Source: Candidatus Woesearchaeota archaeon (lineage in GTDB: Archaea > Nanobdellota > Nanobdellia > Woesearchaeales > DSVV01). Taken from it: 37,108 nt of DNA. The position numbers were made by a program, and so were the translations under genes. The stretch is taken from contig JAGVYH010000046.1 of assembly GCA_018303325.1 (NCBI GenBank), positions 1 to 37,108 on the forward strand, given 5' to 3'. Below the pieces are notes generated by a model. That model saw only the letters and a list, made by a program, of their open reading frames with translations. It searched no databases and was not told the origin of the DNA. This document shows positions 4,104-36,132 of the stretch, piece by piece (within the stretch, counting starts at the first letter, position 1; each line of letters starts with the position of its first letter).

Positions 4104-4275
4104 TTCAGTTCCTGGGAGAAGCCACACGTTTCATTATGAAAACTGGGTGCTAGGTGCTGGGTGCTGGGTGCTAGCAGCGATAATTCATCGTAACTAGCAC
4201 CCAGCACCTAGCACCCACTTAACACCTTTTTTAATTTTTCATGAGACTGTGGACTTCGTCCTTAGTACGTGCTGT
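4104..4275. repeat. Dispersed nested inverted-repeat element, copy A (R-first orientation)
   Basis: Termini GTTCCTGGGAGAAGCCACACGTTTCATTATGAAAA and TTTTCATGAGACTGTGGACTTCGTCC; inner heptad hairpin 4144-4174/4194-4217. Confidence 0.85.
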
Positions 4276-4350
4276 GAGCAAGAGAAAAAGATTAGGGAAC
4301 AAAAAAATAGATGAACAAATAAACGTTTAATTAAATTTATTCTAATCTAT

Positions 4351-5211
4351 CTAACTCATTATTCCATACATCTTATACAGCAGTCTATCCACATCTTTAA
4401 CTATTCCTTTGCCGTATCCATTGAGAGTAATACAATTATTATTGATATCTATGCTTGTTGCAGTGGTTGCATTCACGTCATTAAACACAATTATAGGCAA
4501 AGTTTTATTCTCGCAGGTTAATACAGCAATTTTCTTGCATGCTTCATTCTGATCAGTTGTGCAGGCAGGCAGTAACCTTACATCAAGCACCTGCAGCATG
4601 TTTGTTCTTATCTCGTGATGTGCAAGGTTAATTAGATCAAGATTATTGCTGTTTGGATCGAAACTAAAGTATGCAATATTAGGAAATTGCGTTTCATTGA
4701 TATTAAATTCACTATATTCGCTTAATGTATTATTATAAATATACATCATTTGCAAAAACTGATTGATATCACCATTAACAGGTATGTCTTCTATCTCTTT
4801 CGGACCATAATGTAACGGAATGTCATATTTTATCTTTGTTGATGGATTAAGAATTTGCGTATACCACATATAACCAGTAGTATCACTGCCGATTCTGACA
4901 AAGCTGTATTGATTATACAAATAATTATTCTCATCATCCTTTCCATCTAAAACATCCTGATGCAATTCATTTATTGTTTTAGGAGTTTCTTTGAAAATTG
5001 ATGGAATAGCCAATATAATAATTAAAACAACAAGAACAACACCAACAATTATGCCAAGAAGCTTGTAATCACTGAACCAGCTTTGTTCTTGAATTTCTTC
5101 TACATCTTCTCTTATTTTAATATCGTCAACAGCTATCTTAAACTCATCAGATGTTTTAGAAGTTTCATGTTTCTTGACCTTCTCTTCAACATTTCTTAAT
5201 TTATCACTCAT
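4351..5211 (-). CDS. Membrane-anchored protein of unknown function (paralog of 5424-6032)
   Basis: Start re-set to ATG at 5211 (MSDKLRNVEEK) preceded by AAGGAGGCAGTGAAG; one TM helix LLGIIVGVVLVVLIIILAI. Confidence 0.75.
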   Translation of the reverse strand: MSDKLRNVEEKVKKHETSKTSDEFKIAVDDIKIREDVEEIQEQSWFSDYKLLGIIVGVVLVVLIIILAIPSIFKETPKTINELHQDVLDGKDDENNYLYNQYSFVRIGSDTTGYMWYTQILNPSTKIKYDIPLHYGPKEIEDIPVNGDINQFLQMMYIYNNTLSEYSEFNINETQFPNIAYFSFDPNSNNLDLINLAHHEIRTNMLQVLDVRLLPACTTDQNEACKKIAVLTCENKTLPIIVFNDVNATTATSIDINNNCITLNGYGKGIVKDVDRLLYKMYGIMS

Positions 5212-5261
5212 CTTCACTGCCTCCTTAACACTGCGCTTACAAATTAAAATGAATATAGAGA

Positions 5262-5345
5262 GCTTTGAAAAACTCTTTTTTATGATATTTTTCAAAGCGG
5301 TTCTATTAAGGGTTTTGACTATTGGGGTAGGTTATTCAAAACCCT
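5262..5345. repeat. Two adjacent intergenic hairpins
   Basis: GCTTTGAAAAA/TTTTTCAAAGC (5262-5272/5288-5298) and AGGGTTTTGA/TCAAAACCCT (5309-5318/5336-5345). Confidence 0.75.
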
Positions 5346-5423
5346 CTATAATAAAAATGAATAAACATCTCGTTTAAAAAAGTTTTGTATTAAATTAAAA
5401 ACATATTTTTTATAGACTAAACT

Positions 5424-6032
5424 TCAATTCATAACATCATACAATCCGTATCTTATTCTGTCGAGAATAGCATTAAACTCAAACCCATCTGATGCATATA
5501 AATAAATACAATTATTTTCATTCAGAATTAAAGTTTCATTATAACTTTTTATATATATTACAGGAACAAACTGCGTTGCATTATTGCAGTCAATAAATGG
5601 AAGCGCCTGATAATTGCCTGTGTTATTTGTCACACCAACATAAGGATACATATTAAACTCATTCATGAAAGAATCTCTAATCTGAAAACGCATTAATTCA
5701 ACATCTTTAATATTTTTATCAGTTGGCTCAAAGGTAATATAAACCATCTTTGAATTCTTTAAAGTAGGGATAACATAATCAGAAACATTAATCTTATCTA
5801 ATGACGTCGGATGATAATTAAATTGTATCCATTTATCATTTATTTTTCCGAATATTTGATTGTTACTGTCTGCCTTAAATCTGAAATCATTATAATTATC
5901 CAGTGAAGTAGAGCTGCCCTGCCATACTGCCAAAAGGCTGGATACCATTACAAAGACAATAATAAGCCCAATTACGTTTTTTTTATTAAAAATCTTTGAT
6001 TCAGGTTTTTTGTTAATTTTATTAAATCTCAT
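5424..6032 (-). CDS. Membrane-anchored protein of unknown function (paralog of 4351-5211)
   Basis: N-terminal TM VIGLIIVFVMVSSLLAVW; C-terminus NNCIYLYASDGFEFNAILDRIRYGLYDVMN resembles NNNCITLNGYGKGIVKDVDRLLYKMYGIMS. Confidence 0.75.
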   Translation of the reverse strand: MRFNKINKKPESKIFNKKNVIGLIIVFVMVSSLLAVWQGSSTSLDNYNDFRFKADSNNQIFGKINDKWIQFNYHPTSLDKINVSDYVIPTLKNSKMVYITFEPTDKNIKDVELMRFQIRDSFMNEFNMYPYVGVTNNTGNYQALPFIDCNNATQFVPVIYIKSYNETLILNENNCIYLYASDGFEFNAILDRIRYGLYDVMN

Positions 6033-6152
6033 CTTACACCTTTTTTCTTACACTTTTTTTAGCATGTGTATAACACTTTTTTACTGCTAAACATCATCCT
6101 TTATATTTTTTATTAATAAAACATATAAATTTGGGTAAATCAACTGGAAAAC

Positions 6153-6905
6153 ATGCTCAAAAAAACAACTGAAAAACCAACTTCCAGACCTCAAAAGCCA
6201 ATAATCAAAATTGACGATGTCTGGAAGATTTACAAGATAGGAGATGTTGATATTTATGCTCTGCGCGGGCTTAGCTTAACCATAAACCATGGTGACTTCG
6301 TCGCAGTTATGGGTCCAAGCGGCAGCGGGAAAAGCACTGCTGTGAATATGATAGGATGTTTAGATATTCCCACAAAAGGCAGAATATTTCTTGACGGACA
6401 AGACATATCTCATTTAACTGAATCTGATCTGGCGCAAATCCGAGGCAAAAAGATTGGTTTTGTTTTCCAGCAGTTTAATTTAATAGCTACTCTTACTGCA
6501 CTTGAAAATGTTATGCTGCCCATGATTTTCCAAGGAACACCTGAAGAAGAAAGAAAGAAGAAAGCAAAAGAGCTTTTGGAAAAGATTGGTTTGGGAGACA
6601 GAATGCATCACAAACCATCAGAATTAAGCGGCGGTCAGCAGCAAAGAGTAGCTATTGCAAGAGCATTAAGCAATGATCCGCAGATTATCCTTGCGGATGA
6701 ACCCACAGGCAACCTTGACCAAAAAACAGGCAAAGAGATTATTGCGCTTTTACGCCAGCTTCATCAAAACGGAAAAACAATTGTATTAGTCACACATGAC
6801 CCTGATGTGGCAGAGTATGCTGAAAGGATTGAAAAACTAATGGACGGAAAAATAGTAAGCATTGTTAAAGGTAAGAATCACAATCATCAGCATACAGGCA
6901 GATAA
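6153..6905 (+). CDS. ABC transporter ATP-binding protein, MacB/LolD type
   Basis: Walker A GPSGSGKST, signature LSGGQQQRVAIARAL, Walker B IILADEPTGNLD. Confidence 0.95.
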   Translation: MLKKTTEKPTSRPQKPIIKIDDVWKIYKIGDVDIYALRGLSLTINHGDFVAVMGPSGSGKSTAVNMIGCLDIPTKGRIFLDGQDISHLTESDLAQIRGKKIGFVFQQFNLIATLTALENVMLPMIFQGTPEEERKKKAKELLEKIGLGDRMHHKPSELSGGQQQRVAIARALSNDPQIILADEPTGNLDQKTGKEIIALLRQLHQNGKTIVLVTHDPDVAEYAERIEKLMDGKIVSIVKGKNHNHQHTGR

Positions 6906-7034
6906 GTATTATTGAATAAATAAACATGTTAAATAAATTTTATCCAATTAATTAATTAAATCATAATCAATAAGATATATAAAGAAGTTAAATATAAGAT
7001 AACTTTGTAAAGAGTTATCTTAGTAAGAGGAATA

Positions 7035-8360
7035 ATGCTAATAAAAAAAGAGATTGAAAAAAATAAATTGTTTAAGATATTATTGTTAGTCATCAGTATA
7101 ACCGTTATTATAACCCTTTTTCTAGTTTCATTAAATTTTGTTTCAGCTTCAACAAATATCATTGATTTCCCGATGGTTCATGCTGTTCTGATAGGACAAA
7201 CACCTGATCCTGCTGAGCCTGGCAATATTGTTGAGCTTAGGTTTAATGTATGGAATAATGGCTCTGGTATTTTAGAAAATGTTAATTTTGAATTAATTCC
7301 AGAATGGCCCCTGTCTTTTGTGCCAGGACAAGATGCAAAGATTAATGTTGGCGACCTAAAAACAAAGAATACATACAGCGATAAAGCAGAAGATACAGTT
7401 GTCCTTTTATTTTATCGCCTGCAAATTGATCCAAAGGCAGATTCAGGAACATACCAAGTCAAATTAGAATATACTTCTAAAAATAAATATTCAACAGTTC
7501 AAAAACTGCCTGTTTACAAAATAAGAGTAGAATCTTCAACAAGCCTGCTTGACATAGAAAGTTTTGAAACTCAGCCAGAAAAGATTAAATCAGGCGACAC
7601 CGGCAAATTATTATTAAAATTAACAAATAAAGGAGGGGTTGACCTTAAAGATATCAAAGTAAAACTGGATCTTATCGGAACAGAGTTTTCCCCGATTGGC
7701 TCGACAGATGAGAAGCTCATCAATGAATTGCAGCGCGGCTATTCAACAATGGCAGAGTACAAACTGCTTGCGTCAGGAGACATGAAAGCAAAAGAATATC
7801 AGATTCCTGTAAAAATTGAATTTAAAGACGAGAAAAATAATAAATATACTAAAAATAATACAATCACTCTACTTATTGACTCTTCTCCAGGATATCTGTT
7901 AAATTTAGAGCAAACATCAGTATACAATCCAAACTTAAAAGGAAAGATAATAATAAGCCTTTCAAATATAGGCCAAAGCGATCTTAAATACACTGGTTTG
8001 GAATTAGAAGATACATACGATTATGAAGTGCTTGGGAAAAATAATGAATATCTAGGCAATCTTGAAAGTGATGATTATGAAACCGCTGATTTTGAAATAT
8101 TTGTAAAAGACATACCATTTGGCGGATTGGATAAAAGAAACATCCCATTAAAATTAAAAGTGTATTACAAAGACAGTTATAACAAAGAATACACAGACGA
8201 AAAAGAAGTAGTCCTGCCAATTTATACAACCTCTGCTGCAAAAAAATATGGATTAGTTGCAGGCAGCGGCAGTAAATGGTTTATTGTTTTAATTCTTATT
8301 GTGGTTTTAATTGTGGGTTATATTGTTTACAAAAAAAGAAAGAATAATAATCACAAATAA
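7035..8360 (+). CDS. COG1361/S-layer-like CARDB-type extracellular protein with C-terminal TM
   Basis: Signal/TM at N-terminus, repeated Ig-like segments (LLLKLTNKGGVDLKDIKVKLDL), C-terminal TM WFIVLILIVVLIVGYIVYKKRKNN. Confidence 0.8.
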   Translation: MLIKKEIEKNKLFKILLLVISITVIITLFLVSLNFVSASTNIIDFPMVHAVLIGQTPDPAEPGNIVELRFNVWNNGSGILENVNFELIPEWPLSFVPGQDAKINVGDLKTKNTYSDKAEDTVVLLFYRLQIDPKADSGTYQVKLEYTSKNKYSTVQKLPVYKIRVESSTSLLDIESFETQPEKIKSGDTGKLLLKLTNKGGVDLKDIKVKLDLIGTEFSPIGSTDEKLINELQRGYSTMAEYKLLASGDMKAKEYQIPVKIEFKDEKNNKYTKNNTITLLIDSSPGYLLNLEQTSVYNPNLKGKIIISLSNIGQSDLKYTGLELEDTYDYEVLGKNNEYLGNLESDDYETADFEIFVKDIPFGGLDKRNIPLKLKVYYKDSYNKEYTDEKEVVLPIYTTSAAKKYGLVAGSGSKWFIVLILIVVLIVGYIVYKKRKNNNHK

Positions 8361-8427
8361 ATAATTACAGATTAAATGAGAATAGCTTAATTAAATATGT
8401 ATTTGTGCCAATTTATATTTTTTACCG

Positions 8428-8625
8428 CTCACAACAAGTTATTTGCTCCCAATCAGTTTGGGGGACGAAGTCCACCGTCTCATGAAAAATTAAAATAGGT
8501 GCTGGGTGTTGGGTGCTAGGTGCTAGTTACGAATAATTATCGACACTAGCACCTAGAACCTAGCACCTAGTTTTCATAGTGAACGGGTTGGACATGCCAA
8601 GAACGAAATAAAACGAAAGATTAGC
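8428..8625. repeat. Dispersed nested inverted-repeat element, copy B (L-first)
   Basis: GGGGACGAAGTCCACCGTCTCATGAAAA ... TTTTCATAGTGAACGGGTTGGACATGCCAAGAAC; heptad hairpin 8496-8527/8545-8570. Confidence 0.85.
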
Positions 8626-8694
8626 ATCGCCTATCCTAATCGCAGCAAGCTGCGGGGTATTAAACACAAAAGGGAATAAAAAAATAAAAAATAA

Positions 8695-8778
8695 GAACTA
8701 AAGTCTTTGGTATTCATTACAAAAAGCTCGATACTGCCATTCATCTCATATTTGAAAAAGTGTGTATTCTGGCTTTTT
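8695..8778. repeat. 84-nt structured repeat, copy 1
   Basis: Near-identical to 25325-25408; 12-bp stem ATTACAAAAAGC/GCTTTTTGTAAT. Confidence 0.9.
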
Positions 8779-8826
8779 GTAATAAATCACTGAGAATTAT
8801 ACTATTAAAAATTAGAGGAAACTAAC

Positions 8827-10056
8827 ATGCTGGCAGATTATTTTAGAATCTCATTACGAAATCTACGAAAAAGAAAAATAAGATCCTTTCTTACCATATT
8901 AGGCATAGTTATTGGAATTGTTTCTGTTGTTGGATTAATCTCAATTGGCCAAGGCATGCAGCAAGCAATAAATGAAGAATTTAAGACAGTCGGACAGGAT
9001 AGAATAATAATTAAGCCAGGTGGTGAAGGTTTTACTGGCTCTACTCCAGTTACAGCAGAATTTTCTACTGAAAAATTATATGAACATGATTTAGACGTCG
9101 TAAAAAATTCAAAAGGAGTGTACAAGGCAATTGGGGTTATAATTGATACAGGAGATACTGAGTTTGACAACACCATTAAATACAACAACATATTTGGTGT
9201 TCCTACTGACAGTTATTCTATAAGTTTTATAAAAACAGTTGATTTTTTTATAATTGAAGACGGCAGAGAATTTGAGCAGGGTGATAAATACAAAGCAATT
9301 GTTGGATATAGAACCGCAAAAGAACTTTTTGACAAGGAGATTAGAATCGGCAATAAAGTAATTATCAAAGGTCAAGAGTTCAAAGTAATAGGAATTCAAA
9401 AAAAAACAGGAAGCCCTGTGCATGATTCAATGGTTAGAATCCCTTTAGATGTTTCAAGAGACTTATTAGAAAAGGATGACAAAGAATTCACAACTATTTT
9501 TGCAAAAGTGCAAAAAGGCCTTGATCCTATTAATGTTGCTGAAAGCATAAAAAAAGAATTGAGAAATGACCACGACGTAAAAGAAGGCGAGGAAGATTTT
9601 ACTGTCACTACATCTGTCCAATTAATGGAAGGCTTTAATAACATTCTTAATATTGTGCAGATTGTGCTGATTGGTATTGCAGGAATATCCTTGTTTGTCG
9701 GCGGCATAGGAATAATGAACACAATGTACACTTCTGTTTTGCAGAGGAGAAAGGAGATAGGCATCATGAAATCAATCGGCGCAAAAAACAGCGATATTAT
9801 GATTATTTTCCTTATAGAGTCAGGAATATTAGGAATAATTGGTGGAGTTATTGGAGTTATTCTCGGCATTTCACTCAGCAAAGGCGTAGAACTAATTGCA
9901 TTTAGTTTAGGAGTTGAACTTTTGAAAGCATATATCTCAGCCCCACTGATTATTGGTGCGTTAGTATTTTCGTTTTTAATCGGCGCAGTTTCAGGGCTGA
10001 TGCCAGCGATGCAAGCTGCGAAATTGCAGCCAGTTGATGCGCTGAGAGGTTTTTGA
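8827..10056 (+). CDS. MacB-like FtsX-domain ABC permease (1)
   Basis: RKRKIRSFLTILGIVIGIVSVVGLISIGQGMQ; VGGIGIMNTMYTSVLQRRKEIGIMKSIGA. Confidence 0.95.
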   Translation: MLADYFRISLRNLRKRKIRSFLTILGIVIGIVSVVGLISIGQGMQQAINEEFKTVGQDRIIIKPGGEGFTGSTPVTAEFSTEKLYEHDLDVVKNSKGVYKAIGVIIDTGDTEFDNTIKYNNIFGVPTDSYSISFIKTVDFFIIEDGREFEQGDKYKAIVGYRTAKELFDKEIRIGNKVIIKGQEFKVIGIQKKTGSPVHDSMVRIPLDVSRDLLEKDDKEFTTIFAKVQKGLDPINVAESIKKELRNDHDVKEGEEDFTVTTSVQLMEGFNNILNIVQIVLIGIAGISLFVGGIGIMNTMYTSVLQRRKEIGIMKSIGAKNSDIMIIFLIESGILGIIGGVIGVILGISLSKGVELIAFSLGVELLKAYISAPLIIGALVFSFLIGAVSGLMPAMQAAKLQPVDALRGF

Positions 10057-10094
10057 TGAAGATGATGTTTTTATTTTATGTATTAGTTTACAGC

Positions 10095-10320
10095 GGTGGA
10101 CTTTAATTGTCTTATCAATATTGTTAAAGTCCACCAGTATAGGCACGGTTACTGATTTACGATTATTATTGTCCGTGCCTATAGTTCCTTGGCGAAGCCA
10201 CCCGTCTCATGATGATATTTAATAGTAAGACGTAAGTTGTTAGACGTAGAACGTAAAACAATTATTCAACGCGTAATTCATGATATAGTGGTGGACTGCG
10301 TTCCACAAACGAGCAAGAAG
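10095..10320. repeat. Dispersed element copy C with two accessory hairpins
   Basis: GGTGGACTTTAA/TTAAAGTCCACC (10095-10106/10124-10135), TATAGGCACGG/CCGTGCCTATA (10138-10148/10173-10183), then R end GTTCCTTGGCGAAGCCACCCGTCTCATGAT and L end GTGGACTGCGTTCCACAAACGAGC. Confidence 0.8.
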
Positions 10321-10423
10321 CTGAAATTATGAAGAGAACAGAAAAAAGAAGTTAAGAAATTGTGAATCAACTAAACAAATACAATCTTTTTATTTTTAAT
10401 CAGTGTATTGAAACGAGGTTTAA

Positions 10424-11641: not shown

Positions 11642-11679
11642 TTGCATTGCTGTGAATATGATTAAAACTGAATATTTTT

Positions 11680-11892
11680 TTAGTTCTAGGGCGCAGCCAC
11701 ACGTTCACTAATAAAGTAAGAAGGTTAGAAAGCTTGAAGGTCTGAAAGCTTGAAAGTGCGCTATATGTACGACACTTTCAAGCTGTCAAGCTTTCTAACT
11801 TTCAAACAGTTTCATATGACGGTGGACTTCGTCCCACAAACGTGCTGAGAACAAATAACTGCTCGTAAGCGAATAACTGTTCGTGAGCGAGA
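11680..11892. repeat. Dispersed nested inverted-repeat element, copy D (R-first)
   Basis: AGTTCTAGGGCGCAGCCACACGTTCAC ... GGTGGACTTCGTCCCACAAACGTGCTGAG; octad hairpin 11720-11758/11773-11805; tandem 18-mers AATAACTGYTCGTRAGCG at 11854-11889. Confidence 0.85.
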
Positions 11893-12024
11893 AAAATAAA
11901 TATTAAAAAGATAAACACATACAAAAATTGCAGAAATAATTGAATAACACCAATCTGTTTTATTTATAAAGAATTCAACAAAATTATTTACACTCTCTTA
12001 TTTACACTACCTTACACTACCAAA

Positions 12025-13932
12025 TTATCTTGCAAAAAATTTCAATAATACGCTCCTTTCTCCAGCAGGCAGCTCTTCTTCTTTTGGCAATAATGCTGCG
12101 AATGTGTAAGGCCTTAGTGCATTAAGCCCATCTCCTCTTTCAAGCATTTTATCGCCTGCTTCTATTAATCCTCGCCTGTAAAGTGCGTCTCTAAAACGAT
12201 TATATGCATCCCATGCTTTGCCCCTATTAAGAAGCTCATAACCTTCTTCAATTAATCTTCTTTTTTTCCTTGGAGTTAAATCTGCTCTGATTTCATCAAT
12301 CCTTTCCCTATATTTTCTCTCTTCATCAAGGGCTTTACGCATATAGCTTGGAATTGAAGACATATTAGGTGCATTTGGTGATGATGCTTCAGATTCCTTA
12401 TTTTTTTCAGTTTCATCTGCTTCGCCATCTTTATTTCTTTCTTCCGATGAATTCTCCGATGATTTCCCTGCAAGAGCTCTTTTTGCTTCATTTAATGCTT
12501 TTTTCCATTCTTCTCTTTTATAAGAATCTATACCTATTCCTAAGCTTTTTCGTCTTGCAACTGCCTGTGCTTTTCTTAATCCTTTTGTATAACCAATCTT
12601 CGCCATAATTGGAATTAATCTACCATAATCTGAATACTCCAGTTTAATCAACCCTTCTGACATCTCAGCATCAATTACTTTTATCACACCTTCAGTATTC
12701 CCTGATGCTATAAAATAATCTATGCTCTCACTATAAAATCTGCATGGATGAGATTTCCGATGTTCAAACAATAAATCTGCCAAAGAATTTAATTTAACAA
12801 CATCGCCTATTGCTCTAAGCGACATTCTTACCTCGTCAGAAAAATCATTTGCTTCTACGATATGGTGGCCATATTTTTCAACAATTGCTTTTATTGCGTC
12901 AACAACTCTTTTATCTTCAACATGTGTAACATAATGTGTTTTTAATCTATCCTTTTTTTTAGTAACAAAAGTTCCTGTTGCTCTAAGCGCTCTTAATGTG
13001 CATACAATTAAGCTATGTTCTATATTGAGATAGCTTTCTTCCATTGTTTTAGAAAAAGGATCAACATTTAATGGACTTTCGGCGTAAGATTTGATAAATT
13101 GTTCGTTTGATATTTCCATGGCAAGGTCATATAACATTTCGCTTGCTTCTGATTTTAAAGCACCTTGTACTTGTCCAAACAAAGCAATTGCATATTCTAA
13201 GTTTTGGAGTGAGTTATGAATGCCACAATGAAAATAGTGATCATAGAAATCTACAAGCGCTAACATCCCTGTGTTAATTAAAATTCTTTCATTATCAGAT
13301 AACCTTTTAATTTTAGAAAGAACTTCAAACTGACCAAGCCTTAATGCATGAACACAAATCTCAAACGTTCTTTTTTCGTCGTCAATTGCCGATGCCATGT
13401 TAAGAGCATCATCTAAACTTGTGTTATAATAAGAAATGAGTTTAGTACGTGCAATCCCTAAATGTGAGACAAGCTGCCTGAATCTAGCAATATTATATTT
13501 AGACTGAAAATCACTATAACCTGTTTCAATCTCTAAACCCTCTTCACCATTTGGTGTTTTTAGTTGTCTTGCTCCTTCTGTAAGCAAACGAATCCCTTCT
13601 ATCCCCGCTTTTAACCCAGAAGATAAATTATAGTTTCTACCCTTTGCTAAAAAATCATCTAATCTTCTTGTAACTTTCTGCCTGATTACTTCTTCAGAAA
13701 TACCCATAAGTTTGTATAGATTAATAGCATCTAATGCAAAACTAGTGAGATGCTGACCTCGACAAGTATCATTATTGCCAATATCAAGCATCTGGTCAGC
13801 TGCTTTAATCATTCTTTCTCTTAAATCATCTGGGAGATGAGAATACATTGTTTCCATTGTTTGAACTAATGTTAAACTTGTGCCTTGGTCTTGATTAGTA
13901 CTTAAATGTTGATTAGTGTTTGGATTTTGCAT
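12025..13932 (-). CDS. Hypothetical 635-aa mostly helical protein
   Basis: Long uninterrupted ORF; charged low-complexity linker SSEERNKDGEADETEKNKESE; no recognised family. Confidence 0.75.
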   Translation of the reverse strand: MQNPNTNQHLSTNQDQGTSLTLVQTMETMYSHLPDDLRERMIKAADQMLDIGNNDTCRGQHLTSFALDAINLYKLMGISEEVIRQKVTRRLDDFLAKGRNYNLSSGLKAGIEGIRLLTEGARQLKTPNGEEGLEIETGYSDFQSKYNIARFRQLVSHLGIARTKLISYYNTSLDDALNMASAIDDEKRTFEICVHALRLGQFEVLSKIKRLSDNERILINTGMLALVDFYDHYFHCGIHNSLQNLEYAIALFGQVQGALKSEASEMLYDLAMEISNEQFIKSYAESPLNVDPFSKTMEESYLNIEHSLIVCTLRALRATGTFVTKKKDRLKTHYVTHVEDKRVVDAIKAIVEKYGHHIVEANDFSDEVRMSLRAIGDVVKLNSLADLLFEHRKSHPCRFYSESIDYFIASGNTEGVIKVIDAEMSEGLIKLEYSDYGRLIPIMAKIGYTKGLRKAQAVARRKSLGIGIDSYKREEWKKALNEAKRALAGKSSENSSEERNKDGEADETEKNKESEASSPNAPNMSSIPSYMRKALDEERKYRERIDEIRADLTPRKKRRLIEEGYELLNRGKAWDAYNRFRDALYRRGLIEAGDKMLERGDGLNALRPYTFAALLPKEEELPAGERSVLLKFFAR

Positions 13933-24914: not shown

Positions 24915-24979
24915 AATTAATGTAAGGGTTAGTTAAACCTTTTTTTATTTTTTTAGCTTATTGGATATTTCTTAATTTT

Positions 24980-25130
24980 TTTCTCTTATTCCCAGCTCGT
25001 ACTAGGGACGAAGTCCACAGTCACATGAATTTTCTTAAAGGAATTATAAAAAATCAAATAATTTATTTAAGATGAATAAACTAAGTATCCTCATGAACTT
25101 TGTTGGACATGCCAGGAACTGAACAAAAAT
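24980..25130. repeat. Dispersed element copy E (L-first)
   Basis: GGGACGAAGTCCACAGTCACATGAA ... TCATGAACTTTGTTGGACATGCCAGGAACTGAAC. Confidence 0.8.
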
Positions 25131-25218
25131 TAATAATAACATTTGAAAGATTAAAAATTTAATCAATTTTATTTAATTTTGTATTTGTTTAGTTGATTAA
25201 TTCTTTCTTTATCTTTTT

Positions 25219-25442
25219 TCCGCACACAACTCGTTTGTGGGACGAAGTCCACCGTCTCATGAAAAGTTTTTTACGTTTTTTTAAGCGTTATATAAACAGT
25301 TTAAGTTTAAAATAAAAAACCAAGGACTAAAGTCCTTGGTATTCATTACAAAAAGCTCGATACTGCCATTCATCCCACATTTGAAAAAGTGGGTATTCTG
25401 GCTTTTTTGAGACGTGTGGCTGCGCCCAGGAACTAAACAAAG
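25219..25442. repeat. Dispersed element copy F (L-first), containing the second 84-nt repeat
   Basis: CGCACACAACTCGTTTGTGGGACGAAGTCCACCGTCTCATGAAAA ... TGAGACGTGTGGCTGCGCCCAGGAACTAAAC. Confidence 0.85.
25325..25408. repeat. 84-nt structured repeat, copy 2
   Basis: Near-identical to 8695-8778; terminal hairpin CCAAGGACT-AA-AGTCCTTGG at 25321-25340. Confidence 0.9.
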
Positions 25443-25702
25443 ACCAATTTTTATCTAAACAAGAAATTGTTTTATCAAGATAAGGTTTTTCTCTCCATTT
25501 ATTTATATATTTAAATAAAAAAAATGCCAACAATCTGCAACCTAAATGCCCAGAAATCAAAGATTTCTAGCATATTAGAAATGCTTTTGCATTTCAAATA
25601 GGTCACAGTATTCGCTTTTCCAAATAAACAATAATTATTAATTTTAACTCAAATCAAAGTCATCAATAACTATTTATATTACATTATTTATTCACCATAA
25701 CA

Positions 25703-27902: not shown

Positions 27903-28256
27903 TTGAAAAAATTAAGTTTATCAGAATTAAACTTTGAAGAGAGGTTTACTTATGTCAAAAACATTCCTTTTAATGAGAAAGACCTAAACTGTAAGGGCAG
28001 TAAATTTCAGATTGTTAAATTTAAGCCACACACAAGCATTAAGCCACATTATCATAAAAAAACAAAAGAGATATTTTATATTTTAAAAGGAAACGGCACA
28101 ATAATATTAAACAAGATTAAATTCCAGTGCATGCCCGATGATTTCTTTCTATGTGAACCTAATGATGTACATGAATTTGTTAATAACAGCGAAGAAGAAT
28201 TTGTAATTCTTATATTTAAGACAAACGAAGAAGAAGGAGACATGTTATGGAATTGA
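27903..28256 (+). CDS. Cupin domain protein (TTG start)
   Basis: FKPHTSIKPHYHKKTKEIFYILKGNGTIILN ... CEPNDVHEFVNNSEEEFVILIFK. Confidence 0.85.
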   Translation: MKKLSLSELNFEERFTYVKNIPFNEKDLNCKGSKFQIVKFKPHTSIKPHYHKKTKEIFYILKGNGTIILNKIKFQCMPDDFFLCEPNDVHEFVNNSEEEFVILIFKTNEEEGDMLWN

Positions 28257-28366
28257 TTTCTTAAACATAACCTTTTAGCACAAACAAAGAGAACACAACA
28301 AAATATATAAACCAACACATACATTCTAGTTTATGGACATATTGTTTAGTTTATGGTGTTGATAAA

Positions 28367-28942: not shown

Positions 28943-29796
28943 ATTTCAGAAAAAAGATTAAGAAAATAAAAAGTTATTTTATCTTAAGTACAGAATCACG
29001 TTTAATTATGATTTTATTATTATGTTTAGTTTCATTATTATTTACAGTTGGTTGTTCAAACAAAAACAAACCGCCTGCAGACGACAATAATAATGCTGAA
29101 AATATGAAAGAAATAATCTGGCGCGGCCATGCGACTATTCAATTGAATTCTCAAGAGAAGAATATTGTAATGTATATAGACCCATATAATTTAGATAATC
29201 AAAATAATGATTTAGACAATAATAACTTAAATAATAAAAACAACAATTTAGATAAGGCAGATATTATTCTAATAACGCATGCGCATTATGACCACTGCAG
29301 CTTGGCAGATGCAATAAAGATTGCAAAACCGTCAACAATAATCCTTGCTACATCAGATTGCATGAATAATTTAGAAAAACTCGACGTGGAAAAAAAGGTA
29401 ATTGTTGAGCCAAATAAAAAATATGATATCAATGGGATTATTGTTGAAACAATCCCCGCATACAACATTAATACAAAGTTTCATCCTAAAGAAAATAACT
29501 GGGTTGGCTATGTAATAAATGTAAACAACAGAAGATATTATCACGCAGGCGACACAGATAATATACCAGAAATGGCTTTACTTAAAGAAATAACATTAGC
29601 CAATATTGATGTTGCATTCCTGCCAGTTGGAGGAACATATACAATGAATGCAGAAGAAGCTGTAAAAGCAGCAGGCGCATTTAATCCAAAAAAAGCAATA
29701 CCCATACATTATGGCAGTATCGTCGGGACAAAAGAAGATGCAGAATTATTTAAGGAGAAATGTGATTGCGACGTTGAAATTCTAGAAGAGAATTAA
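28939..29796 (+). CDS. Lipoprotein-like MBL-fold metal-dependent hydrolase
   Basis: Lipobox-like LLFTVGCSN; ILITHAHYDHC; YYHAGDT; IPIHYGSI; overlaps translin stop. Confidence 0.9.
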   Translation: MNFRKKIKKIKSYFILSTESRLIMILLLCLVSLLFTVGCSNKNKPPADDNNNAENMKEIIWRGHATIQLNSQEKNIVMYIDPYNLDNQNNDLDNNNLNNKNNNLDKADIILITHAHYDHCSLADAIKIAKPSTIILATSDCMNNLEKLDVEKKVIVEPNKKYDINGIIVETIPAYNINTKFHPKENNWVGYVINVNNRRYYHAGDTDNIPEMALLKEITLANIDVAFLPVGGTYTMNAEEAVKAAGAFNPKKAIPIHYGSIVGTKEDAELFKEKCDCDVEILEEN

Positions 29797-29845
29797 TTAG
29801 CTTTATTGTATTTATTTATATCCTCACCTGTTTCTCAATCTATTT

Positions 29846-30000
29846 TCCGCTCACAACACGTTTGTGGGCGCAGCCACAGTCACATGAAAAAAAGGTAAGA
29901 AGGTTTGAAGGTCAGATGGTTTGATGGCAGCGACTTATTTCCGTCGTGCCGTTCGTAGTACCTTCAGACCATCAAACCATATTACCATCTTACCTTTTTT
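29846..30000. repeat. Dispersed element copy G (L end only) with octad hairpin reaching into the HAD gene 3' end
   Basis: CCGCTCACAACACGTTTGTGGGCGCAGCCACAGTCACATGAAAA then AAAAAAGGTAAG...ATGG / CC...CTTACCTTTTTT arms. Confidence 0.85.
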
Positions 30001-30849
30001 AGTGAATTCATACATCTTAACAAAGAACGCTTCAACTGGCCTTGCAAATGCTTTTATAAGAAAAGGATCCGTTTGAGGATGCAAAGGGTGAGTAATTTGT
30101 ATTGTCCAAACACCTGCCTGATTCCCTCCAGTAATATCTGTAAATGCCCTGTCTCCTACCATCGCAGCTTTTTCAGGGGAAGTAATTCCTAGTTCTTCCA
30201 TTGCATATTCCACCAGTCTTGTATCTGGTTTTTTAATAATAGTGTAATAATCTCTAAGAACAGCAAGATAATTTTCTCTTCCGCACATTTGCTGCGGTAA
30301 ATATAATTTGTCGTATATAATAGTATCTTTTAATTTTTTAGTTTTAGCACCTAATACCTCTTTGCTAACCCCGCTATTCTTTTGTTTTGCATCATCTTCT
30401 GATATATAAGATACATAAAATTGGTTGTCATCCTTTGGCTCTAAAGTAAATGTTTCTTTGTGCTGGTATATCTTTCTTTTTACAATAGAAGGATTACTTT
30501 CATACATCCTTAACACAGAAATTTCTGGAAAAATCCTGCCAAGTTCCTGAAATCTTTCTTCGCCTGAATTAGATAAGATAATATGTTTCAGTCTTTTATC
30601 GACAGTTAAGGCGTCAAATGCATCTTTTATACTATCATCAACAGCTTTGCCATAATATCTCATCAAAGTGCCATCCACATCCCAAATAACTGCTTCTATT
30701 CCATACTGGTCAAGAAATTCACGTGTAATATCGTTGACAGAAACAACAATTAAATCAGCCAAAACATTATTAGGATGCAGATTCGTAAATAAATCACTGA
30801 AAAAATGCCTTGCTGTATTGAGATAGCCAAATTTTTCTGCAAGAGTCAT
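29935..30849 (-). CDS. HAD-family hydrolase (YqeG-like)
   Basis: AVIWDVDGTLMRYYGKAV, HIILSNSGEERF, KAAMVGDRAFTDITGGNQAGVWTIQI. Confidence 0.85.
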   Translation of the reverse strand: MTLAEKFGYLNTARHFFSDLFTNLHPNNVLADLIVVSVNDITREFLDQYGIEAVIWDVDGTLMRYYGKAVDDSIKDAFDALTVDKRLKHIILSNSGEERFQELGRIFPEISVLRMYESNPSIVKRKIYQHKETFTLEPKDDNQFYVSYISEDDAKQKNSGVSKEVLGAKTKKLKDTIIYDKLYLPQQMCGRENYLAVLRDYYTIIKKPDTRLVEYAMEELGITSPEKAAMVGDRAFTDITGGNQAGVWTIQITHPLHPQTDPFLIKAFARPVEAFFVKMYEFTKKGKMVIWFDGLKVLRTARRK

Positions 30850-30880
30850 TGTAGAATAAGGGAAAGTGTTTCTGTTTTTA

Positions 30881-30997
30881 AATCTTTTTGAGCTTGCTGT
30901 TATTAATTCTTTTTGAACTTGCCGTTATTAATTCTTTTTGAGCTTGCTGTTAATTCTTTTTGAACTTGCTGTTATTAATTCTTTTTTGCCTGCTCTA
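30881..30997. repeat. Imperfect tandem repeat, about 4-5 units of 22-25 nt (AATTCTTTTTGARCTTGCYGTTATT)
   Basis: Direct reading; begins in last codons of the Lrp-like gene. Confidence 0.9.
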
Positions 30998-31985
30998 ACG
31001 GCAGATAAACATGCTTGTAACTCTTTAAAGATTTCACATAATTATAATCCCTGATTTTCCCGTAAAATTTCTGTTTAATGTCGTCAATGACTTTGAGAAA
31101 ATCATTAAAATTAGCAGGCTCTATGTTAAACTCAAAATCAATATTATCACTTATTGACTCGACAACAGATATTACATTTGGGTGCCTGTGGCAGTATTCA
31201 ATTAAACTTGGAATAATTGTGGTATCTTCTAATTCTAAATTAACTTTATAAAATTCATATCCTAATTTACTAAAATTAATGTTTACTCTGTATCCAAGAA
31301 TTATTTTCTTTTTAATTAGCTGCTTTATTCTGTAAATGATGGTCATGCTTCCCAATCCTGTAGCTGCTGCAATCTTTTCAATGGGCATTCTTGCATTTTC
31401 TGTCAGCATTTTAAGGATAATTAAATCTGTCTCGTCTACCTGTTCAGGGGTTGAGCAGCCCTTTTTCCAAGAAAGATGTGAAATATCTTCTGTTTCACCA
31501 ATCAAATATGCTTTTCTGAAAGAAATGTCTCTTGTAATAATGTTTGAGCTGTACTCTTTTATCAAACGTCTAAATCTTTCCACTATTTTGGACCAGTGCT
31601 CTGAGAATTCATAAATATCTTTGACAAAGAAGCTGGCAATAACATCCCATTTGCCAGAAGCCCTTGAAATTCGGCTTGTTTTCTTATCACTAATTAGAAA
31701 TTTAATTAATTCTTCCTCTTTTTTCTGATCTGTTTCATAAAAGTCAAAATACACTCTTATAAGCAGGTAACCTAATTTAGAATAGTCAAATGTTGTTGTA
31801 TATCCTTCAATTATTCCTGCATCTTCCATTCGCTTAATGCGATAATTTACAATGTTTTTGCTAAGCCTTGTAGCTTTAGCTATGGCTGTGTTGCTTTGCC
31901 TGGAGTTTAAATCTAATTCTTTCAGTATCTTTTTATCATTTAAATCAAGTTTTATCTTGTCTTCACAAACATGTGTGATGTGCAT
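30975..31985 (-). CDS. Lrp/AsnC-type regulator with two tandem HTH-ligand modules
   Basis: LDLNDKKILKELDLNSRQSNTAIAKATRLSKNIVNYRIKRMEDAGII and DLIILKMLTENARMPIEKIAAATGLGSMTIIYRIKQLIKKKIILGY. Confidence 0.9.
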   Translation of the reverse strand: MHITHVCEDKIKLDLNDKKILKELDLNSRQSNTAIAKATRLSKNIVNYRIKRMEDAGIIEGYTTTFDYSKLGYLLIRVYFDFYETDQKKEEELIKFLISDKKTSRISRASGKWDVIASFFVKDIYEFSEHWSKIVERFRRLIKEYSSNIITRDISFRKAYLIGETEDISHLSWKKGCSTPEQVDETDLIILKMLTENARMPIEKIAAATGLGSMTIIYRIKQLIKKKIILGYRVNINFSKLGYEFYKVNLELEDTTIIPSLIEYCHRHPNVISVVESISDNIDFEFNIEPANFNDFLKVIDDIKQKFYGKIRDYNYVKSLKSYKHVYLPLEQAKKN

Positions 31986-32114
31986 ATAGACATATTTATT
32001 GTACTTATTTATAAATATTTACAGAGTTTTTAGTTATTTATTAATAATTATCATTTATTTTCTTATTTTGAATGAAAACTAAAACAAATAGTGTGTAATA
32101 CAAATAATAAAAAC

Positions 32115-32265
32115 GCAACTACTAAGCCTACCTCAAAATTGTCAGCTTTGCTATTGAATCTCGTAAGACTATAGGGGAAGCGAAAACACTTGAAAAAGTC
32201 ATCTGTTCTACAAATACTTATTTTGCGGGTTTTCGCCAAAGCTGACTGGTAGGCTTAGTAGTTGC
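32115..32265. mobile_element. MITE-like element (151 nt), 18-bp perfect TIRs, 8-bp flanking direct repeat
   Basis: GCAACTACTAAGCCTACC / GGTAGGCTTAGTAGTTGC; ATAAAAAC at 32107-32114 and 32266-32273; inner stems GTCAGCTTT/AAAGCTGAC and GCGAAAAC/GTTTTCGC. Confidence 0.85.
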
Positions 32266-32276
32266 ATAAAAACAAA

Positions 32277-33200
32277 TCATAAATCCTTTTTCATTATTTC
32301 CGTGTAATTTATCTCTCCAACTCTTCCAATTACTGTCCTTACATCTCCTGAAAGATATTCCTGTTCAATCTGCTGCCTTATTTGTAATCTATCTGCATAT
32401 TGTTGTTTGAGTGTATCAAGATTTCTTCTTCCATTTATAGCTTTATGGTTACATGCTAACTTGTAGAGATAGCTGCCACCCATAAACGGAATTGGTGAAG
32501 CTACAAGTGTAAAAATAGCAGTTATACCTATCGTCCTACCAACATCACGTGCTGATACCCCAAAAAAAAGATAGCCTAAAGCACTTCCTAACGCACTTAC
32601 AACAATAGGAGTTAATGTTGCATAAACCCCTGCTAAATTTATATGCACGTTTACATTTTCACAATTTGTAATCATCTCTTCTAATTTACTTATTTTCCTT
32701 TCAGCTTTTTCAAAGTCTTTTTTTGAAACACCAATTATTCTATAAACTTCTTTTATGAAACGATGATGAAAGATATCTTCTACACCATTGTCAACAGCTT
32801 GCTCTAAATAAGAATAATATCGTCTTAATGCTGAATCCGTTATAGGTGTTGAGGGCACAGTAATATTTGGAGCTGTTAATAAGCCTGTAAGTGTATGAGA
32901 TACTGGTGAATGTGTAGGTAACTGTTGTGGTGGAGATACTAGTGAACCTGTAGGTAACTGTTGTGGTGAAGATACTGGTGAACCAGTAGGTAACTGTTGT
33001 TGAGAGGATACTTTTTGTTGTGGAGATGGTGGTTGCATAACTGGACTTTGAGATACAACAACTTGTAGAGCAGAAGCATTAGATAGGGGAGCTACTAAAT
33101 AAGGAGAATTACCTTGCTGCAATCCTTTTGGTCGAGCACTTAATCTTCTATCCTCTTCTATTGCCTCATAATAATTACCCATTTTTATCACCATAAACAA
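32277..33200 (-). CDS. Hypothetical membrane protein with Q/P-rich tandem repeats
   Basis: SSQQQLPTGSPVSSPQQLPTGSLVSPPQQLPTHSPVS repeats; hydrophobic AGVYATLTPIVVSALGSALGYLFFG and GITAIFTLVASPIPFMGG. Confidence 0.75.
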   Translation of the reverse strand: MFMVIKMGNYYEAIEEDRRLSARPKGLQQGNSPYLVAPLSNASALQVVVSQSPVMQPPSPQQKVSSQQQLPTGSPVSSPQQLPTGSLVSPPQQLPTHSPVSHTLTGLLTAPNITVPSTPITDSALRRYYSYLEQAVDNGVEDIFHHRFIKEVYRIIGVSKKDFEKAERKISKLEEMITNCENVNVHINLAGVYATLTPIVVSALGSALGYLFFGVSARDVGRTIGITAIFTLVASPIPFMGGSYLYKLACNHKAINGRRNLDTLKQQYADRLQIRQQIEQEYLSGDVRTVIGRVGEINYTEIMKKDL

Positions 33201-33269
33201 TATTTATCCACTATTTACACCTTTTATTCCCTGGCCTACAACATATAGTGTAAAGAAAGAGGATTATTA

Positions 33270-33402
33270 AATTTCCTATAGTTTTTTAAGTCAAAATAAG
33301 AAGAGTTTATGACAGATAATAAATAAAATATGAATTTTTAGTATTTTTTATTAGATTATACAGAGTATTTTCTTATTTTGAATGAAAATTTAGTAGGAAA
33401 TT
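33270..33402. promoter_or_regulatory. Bipartite inverted repeat in divergent intergenic region
   Basis: AATTTCCTA-N12-TCAAAATAAGAA (33270-33302) and TTCTTATTTTGA-N12-TAGGAAATT (33370-33402). Confidence 0.6.
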
Positions 33403-33512
33403 ATATATATTAATAACTACATTATAGTGATATAATAACAGATAAAACATAAGAAAAGGAAGAGGTAAATAATAGAAAGTCGGGAAAAAGAGCAAAGGCA
33501 AAGGTGGTCAAA

Positions 33513-33635
33513 ATGGAAGGACAAGCAGGAATGTCATGTATGCGATATGAACAGCTAAAAGATAAAGAATATGGACAAGGCATAGGACTATTTGTACTAG
33601 CTGTAGCCATAATCCTGATACTGTTTTTTATGTAA
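33513..33635 (+). CDS. Small 40-aa single-pass membrane protein
   Basis: MEGQAGMSCMRYEQLKDKEYGQGIGLFVLAVAIILILFFM*; GGTGG upstream; absent from ORF track because short. Confidence 0.5.
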   Translation: MEGQAGMSCMRYEQLKDKEYGQGIGLFVLAVAIILILFFM

Positions 33636-33703
33636 TTAAATGAATTTTAAAGTGAAGATAGAACTTTAATCAAATGAATTTAATGAAAAGGGGGGAATAC
33701 AGA

Positions 33704-33871
33704 ATGAAAGTGAAAACATGTCTTGGACTAGAAAAAGAAATGATAACAGACTCAGAGATTTTAGATTTAATAACAAAGGCAAAAATGAACCAACAAGATA
33801 TTGTAGAGATAAAAGGCATCAAAATCAAGTTAAATAAAGATCAATGCTTTGAGTGCGGGATATTGGATTGA
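33704..33871 (+). CDS. Small protein of unknown function
   Basis: MKVKTCLGLEKEMITDSEILDLITKAKMNQQDIVEIKGIKIKLNKDQCFECGILD after GGGGGGAATACAGA; track ORF starts at 33674. Confidence 0.5.
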   Translation: MKVKTCLGLEKEMITDSEILDLITKAKMNQQDIVEIKGIKIKLNKDQCFECGILD

Positions 33872-33913
33872 TAATAAATAATATAAATGGTAGTGTATTA
33901 CTAGGAATATACC

Positions 33914-33951
33914 AAAAGCACAAAATAATGTTTCGATTATTTTGTGCTTTT
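33914..33951. repeat. 16-bp perfect hairpin related to hairpin 2 at 4030-4066
   Basis: AAAAGCACAAAATAAT-GTTTCG-ATTATTTTGTGCTTTT followed by AGTATA. Confidence 0.92.
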
Positions 33952-33979
33952 AGTATAAATAAAATAGGAGTGATGTACT

Positions 33980-35008
33980 ATGTCAGGAGATAGATTGACT
34001 TTGGCGGGTGTTTTTTTAGTAATCGCAACAATTGCTGGTATAAGAGCTGAGAATGATAGATATACTAGTAACCCACCAGAACAAAATAATGAATCTAATG
34101 TTGAACAGCTAGAACAAAGTGATGAACATAAAGTTGAACCATTAAAACAGAATGATGAACATAAAGTTGAACTGCCAAAACAAAATATACTAACTGATAA
34201 AATAGCATATAAACTAGCTGGACAGATCGCCGAATTTCCAAGAGATTCTCATAAAGAAAAAGTGGGTTTAGCTGCTTCGGATTTTGATAAAGATGGTGAT
34301 ATTGATTTGGCAGTTATGAAAGTCCTAGGCAATCGTGGCAAAGTTTTTCTTTACAAAAATGAAGGTCAAGGAAATTATGTTTTAGATGGACAAATCATAG
34401 ATATGTCAAGAGATTTCTTTAGAAGAGTAATAGATCTAGCTGCTGCTGATTTTGATAAAGATGGGAATATTGATTTAGCATTTATGGTGAATTATTATGG
34501 TGGTTATAATGGCAGCTTAGTTTGGCTCTACAAAAATCAAGGCGACGGCGGCTGTAGAAGCCCTTACCAAGATAAAGGTCAAGGAAACTACATTGGAGCG
34601 GGGAAAATTGCAGAAGCTATAGAATATGGCCTCAATGAAAAAGGAGTTGGTTTAGCTGCTGCGGATTTTGATGGTGATGGTGATATTGAGTTAGTGGCAA
34701 GGGTAAGAGAGTTAGTGACAAAGAGAAGTCCATATAAATATACCGTTCGTCTTTTTGAAGATATTATAACCAAAGAAAACTATCTTTTATCTGGACGACA
34801 AATTGAAGAAGCGACAATATCAAGCAACAGTACTGGAGAAACAGGTTTAGCTGCTGCGGATTTTGATAGGGATGGTGATATTGATTTAGCATTTATAGAA
34901 ACTAGTCGTAATAAACATAAAGTTCTTCTCTACACAAATGAGAGAATAGAAACTCTTGTAGAAACACAAGAAGGAGATAATCAAAATGGAGAAAATATTA
35001 ATAATTGA
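33980..35008 (+). CDS. FG-GAP/VCBS repeat protein
   Basis: Four DFDxDGDIDL-type Ca-binding repeats (ASDFDKDGDIDLAVM, AADFDKDGNIDLAFM, AADFDGDGDIELVAR, AADFDRDGDIDLAFI). Confidence 0.9.
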   Translation: MSGDRLTLAGVFLVIATIAGIRAENDRYTSNPPEQNNESNVEQLEQSDEHKVEPLKQNDEHKVELPKQNILTDKIAYKLAGQIAEFPRDSHKEKVGLAASDFDKDGDIDLAVMKVLGNRGKVFLYKNEGQGNYVLDGQIIDMSRDFFRRVIDLAAADFDKDGNIDLAFMVNYYGGYNGSLVWLYKNQGDGGCRSPYQDKGQGNYIGAGKIAEAIEYGLNEKGVGLAAADFDGDGDIELVARVRELVTKRSPYKYTVRLFEDIITKENYLLSGRQIEEATISSNSTGETGLAAADFDRDGDIDLAFIETSRNKHKVLLYTNERIETLVETQEGDNQNGENINN

Positions 35009-35636
35009 AGATAATGCTGCAGAATCAGCTTGTGCCCAATCTGAATTAGAAAAAGCTGGATTTAAAGAGGTTAAAACAGTTACAAATTTATCAGATGGTT
35101 TGGAAACAATGTCACAATACAGCGCTGTTTTATCAGACTTGTTTTTTCCTGCTGGAAATACACCAACAGAACAATATTCTCAAAGATTTCTACCATCCTA
35201 TGAACAATTCAAGCAAAGAAGATTTCCAAAGATAGACAAAGATAATCCTATTTTAAGAGCTATAGACGTCTGTGCCAAGATTTTCGGCATGACACCACAA
35301 GAGTATGTAGAAAACGTTGTAGCTAAACTAAACACACCAGAACTTGTTTTGAAGATGGTAAGAGATGCTTTAGCAGGAGTTGAGAACTCAGAAAAATATG
35401 CAAAGTTTTTGGAAATAGAAGAAGGAATTAGAAATGGAACAAATTTACCATTAGGAATAATTGCTTGTGAAAGAGCTGCTGAATTAGGAATGCCTGCAAT
35501 TATTGTCACATCAACATATCATCATAGTGATGCATTTGAACCAATAAGTGGTTTAATTAAAGTTTCTTATTGTGATAGATTAGTAGATGAAAAAAAGGAT
35601 TGGAAAGGAGGCATAGAATTGCTTGTGAGACGATAA
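34986..35636 (+). CDS. Receiver (REC)-like protein with large internal insertion
   Basis: MEKILIIEDNAAESACAQSELEKAG, VLSDLFFP, GMPAIIVTSTYHH; overlaps the FG-GAP ORF by 23 nt. Confidence 0.7.
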   Translation: MEKILIIEDNAAESACAQSELEKAGFKEVKTVTNLSDGLETMSQYSAVLSDLFFPAGNTPTEQYSQRFLPSYEQFKQRRFPKIDKDNPILRAIDVCAKIFGMTPQEYVENVVAKLNTPELVLKMVRDALAGVENSEKYAKFLEIEEGIRNGTNLPLGIIACERAAELGMPAIIVTSTYHHSDAFEPISGLIKVSYCDRLVDEKKDWKGGIELLVRR

Positions 35637-35693
35637 ATATTGTTAAAAGCAAAACAAGAAAATATATATTTGTTTATATGATTAATAATTTTT

Positions 35694-36132
35694 CTCGTTC
35701 CCAATCCTGTTTCTCGCTCTCAGCTCGTTTGTGGGACGCAGTCCACCGTGTAGGCACGGACACTAATTTTTGTATATTCATTTCCGTGCATACATACGTG
35801 GACTTTAACTAAATTAATACAGATATTAAAGTCCACAGCTATCTCATGAATGCTTTTTTCGAAGAGTTTATTAGAAAAATAAACATTGTAAACCTAAACT
35901 ATAGCAAAGGCACTAAATTTCCGTAATTAATAATGCCTTTGCTATATACGTGGACTTTAACAAAAAAGATACGAATATTAAAGTCCACCACTATAAATAT
36001 CATCATGGGACGTGTGGCTGCGCCCAGGAACTATACTAATACTATAGTAAACGCACTAAATTTTAGTAATTAGTCGTTGCGTTTACTATATTGGGCGAAT
36101 TAAACAAATTTATTCGATTATTTAATTCGCCA
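35694..36132. repeat. Composite hairpin array: dispersed element copy H plus accessory hairpins
   Basis: L end 35694-35749; hairpins 35749-35794, 35798-35836, 35900-35946, 35950-35988; R end CATGGGACGTGTGGCTGCGCCCAGGAACTAT; hairpins 36043-36090 and about 36094-36132. Confidence 0.9.

What the first reader, a model, noticed from the sequence alone, without database searches (positions are those of the whole stretch)
4104..36045. Family of at least eight dispersed intergenic elements with conserved termini and non-conserved interiors
Copies at about 4104-4275, 8428-8625, 10181-10320, 11680-11892, 24980-25130, 25219-25442, 29846-30000 and 35694-36035. One end reads approximately TTTCTCGCTCACAACTCGTTTGTGGGACGAAGTCCACCGTCTCATGAAAA; the other, read inward, TAGTTCCTGGGCGCAGCCACACGTCTCATGAAAA. 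Both ends finish in CCAC-CGTCTCATGAAAA, so each element is an inverted repeat. The interior differs completely between copies. Elements occur in both orientations. A conserved frame around changing cargo suggests a structure-recognised mobile or RNA element rather than a simple copied sequence.
Basis: seen in the sequence. Interest (0 to 1): 0.85.

Follow-up and report, generated by a model that had tools for sequence, protein, structure and literature searches.

The report
Miniature transposons in a Woesearchaeota genome
The repeated intergenic elements are copies of a small gene-less "jumping" DNA element (a MITE), present in well over a hundred copies in this tiny-cell archaeon and also abundant in its sister species; it is a new family of a well-known kind, unusual mainly for the hairpins and nested elements it carries inside.

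Summary
In detail: dispersed, near-palindromic elements with conserved inner ends lie at the listed places, far above chance. The full element begins and ends with a 12-bp terminal inverted repeat, GTATTTGTTTAG...CTAAACAAATAC, and makes 8-bp target-site duplications: 10 of 73 TIR-bounded elements have perfect 8-bp flanking repeats and 9 more have 7/8 (0.01 and 0.33 expected); exact abutting repeats occur at no other length tested. A sister species (about 86-91% nucleotide identity) gives empty sites with a single target octamer. The inner-end pattern has 141 hits in this genome, 95 in the sister, none in 97 other genomes of the order. Only 2 of 127 copies lie inside ORFs; copies are over-represented between convergent genes. 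This is a new MITE family (non-autonomous DNA transposon), presumably moved in trans by a DDE-type transposase that I did not find. Interiors do not all differ completely: many share an AT-rich filler, about 40% are long hairpins, mostly of 7-8-bp tandem units, and some hold a second nested MITE (twin hairpins, TA duplication). The two arms do not covary within copies, so a maintained structural RNA is not supported.

The parts
4094..4325 (-). E1 MITE copy W1 (interior = GGTGCTA-type 7-bp-unit hairpin); approximate ends, TIRs degenerate; also present at the same site in the sister species
8399..8625 (+). E1 copy W2 (GGACATGCC-type right end, GGTGCTA-type hairpin inside); no E1 at this gap in the sister species; right end approximate
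10080..10382 (-). E1 copy W3, TIRs GTATTAGTTTA...CTAAACAAATAC, with a nested E2 element at about 10091-10183; no E1 at this gap in the sister species
11672..11922 (-). E1 copy W4 (GAAAGCTT-type 8-bp-unit hairpin inside); no E1 at this gap in the sister species, which also lacks the neighbouring gene at 12025-13932
24944..25130 (+). E1 copy W5a (AT-rich interior, GGACATGCC-type right end)
25181..25444 (+). E1 copy W5b, TIRs GTATTTGTTTAG...CTAAACAAAGAC; interior holds AT-rich filler plus a further repeat of about 99 bp shared with 8680-8778
29808..30005 (+). E1 copy W6, right end lost; the 3' end of the minus-strand ORF 29935-30849 lies inside it; the sister species has a different E1 copy in the opposite orientation in this gap
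35664..36042 (+). E1 copy W7 with two nested E2 elements; the sister species has a different E1 copy in the opposite orientation in this gap
10091..10183 (.). E2 twin-hairpin MITE nested in W3 at the TA of its GTTTAGTTCC end
35748..35843 (.). E2 twin-hairpin MITE nested in W7 (CCGT^CTCATGA)
35899..35995 (.). E2 twin-hairpin MITE nested in W7 interior
36042..36138 (.). E2 twin-hairpin MITE abutting W7
3980..4072 (.). E2 twin-hairpin MITE (TACTAAA...TTTAGTA subfamily) next to W1
5254..5350 (.). probable E2-type twin hairpin, absent from the sister species at this site

Best explanation
[quoted passage not shown] Shown: it is bounded by 12-bp terminal inverted repeats (GTATTTGTTTAG), duplicates exactly 8 bp of target on insertion, is absent from homologous sites in a sister species where a single target octamer remains, codes for nothing, and is present in more than a hundred copies in this genome. 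Inferred: a DDE-type transposase acting in trans binds the terminal and subterminal inverted repeat (perhaps including the C(GNA)G mini-hairpin and CGTCTCATGA block, which are read inward from both ends), moves or copies the element, and inserts it with an 8-bp stagger. The interior is not needed for movement and is therefore free to change: nested insertion of another MITE, repeat growth inside long hairpins, and swaps of modules between copies. Selection removes insertions in genes and in divergent promoter regions, leaving copies between convergent genes and downstream of genes.
For: 8-bp direct repeats: 10 exact and 9 at 7/8 among 73 elements, against 0.01 and 0.33 expected from re-paired flanks; exact abutting repeats only at length 8, none at 5, 6, 7, 9-12 (earlier statistic, z 7.8). 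Empty sites: sister element with AATAATTA on both sides, own genome uninterrupted with one AATAATTA (88%); sister 132-bp element with GGAATATG on both sides, own genome one GGAATATG; own element with AAAAAATA on both sides, sister one copy; one further, less well aligned site at 78%. Window copies W2, W3 and W4 lack an E1 counterpart in the sister. Pattern hits 141 and 95; none in 97 other genomes. A body unrelated in sequence (132 bp) with the same TIR and 8-bp duplications in the sister shows that the ends, not the interior, define mobility. Of 127 copies, 2 lie in ORFs; 51 convergent / 63 tandem / 8 divergent gaps, against 64 / 238 / 67 for gaps without E1. Arms decay independently.
Against: No autonomous copy was found: no transposase bounded by this TIR in the stretches read, and no hit in either genome for PF12762, PF01610, PF03050 or PF00872. 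Both genomes are draft assemblies (92% and 76% complete), so it may be unassembled, extinct, or in an untested family. Most copies have decayed or no recognisable duplication, as expected for old insertions. The restriction of the mini-hairpin loop to GCA (107) and GAA (60), with no GGA or GTA, is not explained by a MITE as such.
Confidence: 0.95

Rival explanations
1. REP/IS200-IS605-like elements: single-strand hairpins recognised by a Y1 HUH transposase, with no target duplication.
For: The ends carry small imperfect hairpins with a GNA triloop, and copies are intergenic.
Against: True terminal inverted repeats and 8-bp target-site duplications are not products of Y1 HUH transposition, which makes no duplication and does not use TIRs (own knowledge of the family).
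Confidence: 0.02
2. A conserved structural RNA or regulatory leader family, spread by duplication, whose fold is under selection.
For: A compact copy folds better than shuffles as single-stranded DNA (z -5.3); conserved mini-hairpins; location bias to gene 3' ends.
Against: Inner arms pair no better within copies than between copies (z 0.9); no Rfam match at gathering threshold; palindromes fold well simply because they are inverted repeats; presence/absence differs between sister species.
Confidence: 0.03
3. Integron attC-like recombination sites (conserved ends, variable palindromic centre).
For: Conserved frame around a variable palindromic interior resembles attC in outline (own knowledge).
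Against: Sites are scattered singly between ordinary chromosomal genes in both orientations, not in a cassette array; they have TIRs and 8-bp duplications; the end motifs have the opposite polarity to RYYYAAC...GTTRRRY (own knowledge of attC).
Confidence: 0.005
4. A dual-use family: MITE in origin, with many copies now serving as transcription terminators or mRNA 3'-end structures.
For: Excess between convergent genes, and 41 of 63 tandem-gap copies point the same way as the genes; the left arm is T-rich, as archaeal terminators are (own knowledge).
Against: The same distribution arises if insertions into promoters and genes are simply removed; no expression data; arms are not kept complementary.
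Confidence: 0.25

Closest known systems
Prokaryotic MITEs in general (review PMC10969869)
   Same: <500 bp, non-coding, TIRs within 4-30 bp, AT-rich, intergenic, direct repeats in younger copies, multicopy, stem-loop forming, insertion into one another
   Different: No parental insertion sequence identified; interiors of many copies replaced by hairpins of 7-8-bp units; host is Woesearchaeota, which is not among the archaea named in the passage of that review that I read
Correia elements of Neisseria (PMC10969869)
   Same: About 200 bp, >120 copies, small palindromic MITE
   Different: Unrelated TIR; Correia target is TA (own knowledge), E1 target is 8 bp; Correia is described as lying immediately upstream of genes, E1 avoids divergent promoter gaps
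hupL MITE of Ca. Thiomargarita nelsonii (PMC4853749)
   Same: High-copy MITE with TIR, long direct repeat (10 bp there) and no parental IS found in ISfinder
   Different: Different duplication length; a copy there interrupts a gene, E1 almost never does
IS200/IS605-derived PATEs of haloarchaea (library hit PMC3119063, not read; compared from own knowledge)
   Same: Archaeal, non-autonomous, small hairpins near the ends
   Different: PATEs lack TIRs and target duplications

Membership tests
MITE (non-autonomous DNA transposon) | Short (<500 bp), no coding capacity | tested here: met
   Typical TIR-to-TIR lengths 130-300 bp; element cores lie outside ORFs of 90+ codons in 125 of 127 copies
MITE (non-autonomous DNA transposon) | Terminal inverted repeats | tested here: met
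   GTATTTGTTTAG exact: 59 hits in own genome, 64 in sister, reversed control 0 and 1; inward-facing pairs bound the elements
MITE (non-autonomous DNA transposon) | Fixed-length target-site duplication | tested here: met
   8 bp, 19 of 73 at >=7/8 against 0.34 expected
MITE (non-autonomous DNA transposon) | Empty sites in relatives | tested here: met
   Four sites; one (AATAATTA) well aligned on both sides with a single octamer, two (GGAATATG, AAAAAATA) with a single octamer and good alignment mainly on one side, one (78%) with a poorly aligned junction
MITE (non-autonomous DNA transposon) | Autonomous parent with the same ends | tested here: inconclusive
   No TIR-bounded transposase in stretches read; PF12762, PF01610, PF03050, PF00872 no hits; PF01609 and PF13610 hits without these ends
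IS200/IS605-type (HUH Y1) or REP elements | No target duplication, no TIR | tested here: not met
   8-bp duplications and TIRs present
Structured RNA family | Compensatory changes between paired arms | tested here: not met
   Inner stem: z 0.9 against re-paired arms
Structured RNA family | Match to a described family | tested here: not met
   0 Rfam hits at gathering threshold in the window

The most novel reading that the evidence does not exclude
The E1 ends are recognised as folded single-strand or cruciform DNA (C(GNA)G mini-hairpins at both ends) by a transposase of an undescribed family that nevertheless makes 8-bp duplications, and the interior is actively remodelled by a process that grows inverted arrays of 7-8-bp units, giving one frame many unrelated hairpin cargos.
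Probability: 0.08. Interest if true: 0.65.

Novelty: new member of a known kind. Interest (0 to 1): 0.38.

Why it matters
It documents a high-copy (141 motif hits in 1.97 Mb) transposon family in Woesearchaeota, a DPANN lineage, with insertion differences between two species that give empty sites. In the window and the stretches read, many intergenic gaps are made of nested miniature transposons, which affects gene-end annotation, assembly breaks and any reading of these hairpins as non-coding RNAs. The 7-8-bp-unit hairpins inside the elements are an open question.

Tried and rejected
Rfam scan of the window: nothing at gathering threshold. Two-genome searches for transposase families: PF12762, PF01610, PF03050, PF00872 none; PF01609 one hit (L250) and PF13610 one per genome (L251, L252), none flanked by the E1 TIR. 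Search of fetched loci for lone TIRs next to ORFs: only chance-looking cases. Exact E1 core in IMG/VR: none; the 132-bp element's end in IMG/VR: five lone hits without a partner end, taken as chance. Structural RNA: rejected on lack of covariation. attC and Y1 HUH readings: rejected on TIR and 8-bp duplication. Papers on MITEs in DPANN or on insertion sequences in Woesearchaeota: no relevant one in the library. A covariance model was not built, because boundaries and relatives were already settled by pattern searches; more diverged relatives than 3 mismatches in 23 could therefore have been missed.

Full report
What is there. The eight listed places hold copies of one dispersed family, here called E1. 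The inner motifs are far above chance in the window and genome-wide: 117 hits of GGACGAAGTCCAC with at most one mismatch against 1 for the reversed control, and 141 hits of GGACGMAGTCCACCGTCTCATGA with at most three mismatches against 0. The genome is a 1.97-Mb draft; the only same-genus genome found (G001, 1.4 Mb draft) has 95 hits, and 97 further genomes of the family and order have none.

Anatomy. Reading many copies: left TIR GTATTTGTTTAG; a T-rich stretch with one to three ~20-nt units of the type TTTCTCGCTCTCAATCCTG; CTCGTTTGTGG; mini-hairpin GGAC-GNA-GTCC; ACCGTCTCATGA; interior; TCATGAGACG; mini-hairpin GGCTGCGCC (or GGACATGCC, or CCAATCAGG); CAGGAAC; right TIR CTAAACAAATAC. Read inward, both ends have the same order of parts, so the element is a long imperfect inverted repeat with a small palindrome in each arm. 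Hybrid copies occur in which a left end carries the GGCGNAGCC hairpin or a right-type end carries GGACGNAGTCC. The loop base N is C in 107 and A in 60 copies, never G or T.

Mobility. In 73 TIR-bounded elements the 8 bp on the two sides are identical in 10 and differ at one base in 9; pairing left flanks with other copies' right flanks predicts 0.01 and 0.33. Exact repeats abutting both ends occur only at length 8; none at 5, 6, 7 or 9-12. Joined flanks of ten elements with perfect duplications were searched in both genomes. The sister element at G001:C67:4813-5018 (AATAATTA on both sides) corresponds to uninterrupted sequence in the own genome with one AATAATTA; the 132-bp sister element at G001:C87:8846-8979 (GGAATATG) corresponds to one GGAATATG; the own element in C46 (AAAAAATA) corresponds to one copy in G001:C26; a fourth site is empty but aligns poorly at the junction. 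In the window, W2, W3 and W4 have no E1 counterpart in the sister species (the intergenic sequence there is too diverged for a base-exact junction), W1 is shared, and in the gaps of W6 and W7 the sister has other E1 copies in the opposite orientation. The 132-bp elements share only the TIR with E1 and still make 8-bp duplications, so the ends define what moves.

Interior. Of 94 interiors folded as DNA, 37 are much more stable than dinucleotide shuffles (z < -3). Most of these belong to several unrelated sequence families (GGTGCTA, GTCGTTA, GACGTTA, TATTCGT, GAAAGCTT, GATGGTTT types), each made of 7- or 8-bp units: identity at lag 7 is 0.42 and at lag 14 0.35, against about 0.26 in shuffles. 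Many of the others share one AT-rich filler (e.g. AAAAGTTTTTTACGTTTTTTTAAGCGTTATATAAAC). Some copies hold a second family, E2: about 95-bp twin hairpins which occur in several sequence subfamilies and insert at TA with TA duplication; empty sites in the window against E2 insertions in the sister genome are seen near window 33203 and 26396, and E2 nests in W3 and W7.

Location. Of 127 copies with enough flank, 2 lie in ORFs of 90 or more codons; of the rest with two assignable neighbours, 51 are in convergent, 63 in tandem and 8 in divergent gaps, against 64, 238 and 67 for gaps without E1 in the same loci, where overlapping loci are counted more than once. In tandem gaps 41 copies point with the genes and 22 against. 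ORFs were called mechanically, so these are rough counts.

Is it an RNA? The inner stem is 81.3% Watson-Crick within copies and 80.7% (sd 0.8%) when arms are re-paired between copies. The arms therefore mutate independently. A compact copy folds well (z -5.3), as any inverted repeat does. No Rfam family matches at gathering threshold.

Transposase. Not found. Families with 8-bp duplications (own knowledge) tested by profile (IS1595, ISL3, IS66, IS256) have no hit in either genome; the IS6/IS240 profile has one hit in each genome and DDE_Tnp_1 one in the own genome, none with E1 ends. Both genomes are incomplete. A DDE transposase is inferred from TIRs and a fixed stagger, not shown.

Verdict. 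E1 is a new MITE family: a new member of a known kind, firmly established. Unusual points are its high copy number in a DPANN archaeon, the nested MITEs, and the 7-8-bp-unit hairpins whose origin I cannot explain.

Noticed in passing
window 3980-4072, 5254-5350, 10091-10183, 35748-35843, 35899-35995, 36042-36138; L164, L165: Second mobile family E2: about 95-bp twin-hairpin elements in several sequence subfamilies, with TA target duplication and empty sites between the two species; nests inside E1.
   Followed up: partly
interiors of E1 copies, e.g. L004, L030, L080, L207, window 8499-8570: At least six unrelated hairpin families, all made of 7- or 8-bp tandem units arranged as inverted arrays; no mechanism known to me.
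   Followed up: partly
window 8680-8815 and 25309-25407; L051: Third dispersed repeat (91% identical over 99 bp) with two hairpins each followed by TATTC; could be an IS200/IS605-derived miniature element.
   Followed up: no
window 29935-30005: The 3' end of the minus-strand ORF 29935-30849 (about 20 codons) reads into the E1 copy W6, which has lost its right end: possible capture of element sequence by a gene.
   Followed up: no
L008, L042: Two E1 copies are interrupted by sequence beginning TGGAGTGAACCCC...TTGACA, apparently an insertion-sequence end.
   Followed up: no
window 29796-30005 and 35640-36160 against L164: In both gaps the sister species carries a different E1 copy in the opposite orientation, suggesting these convergent gaps are repeated targets.
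   Followed up: partly
L219:5201-5333, L220:446-580, L216, L131: 132-134-bp MITE with the same TIR but unrelated body, closely similar copies in the sister species, so probably a recent burst.
   Followed up: partly
L164 around 4130-4770 (reverse strand) against window 33180-33260: Sister genome carries an extra gene-sized segment next to an E2 insertion that is absent from the window.
   Followed up: no
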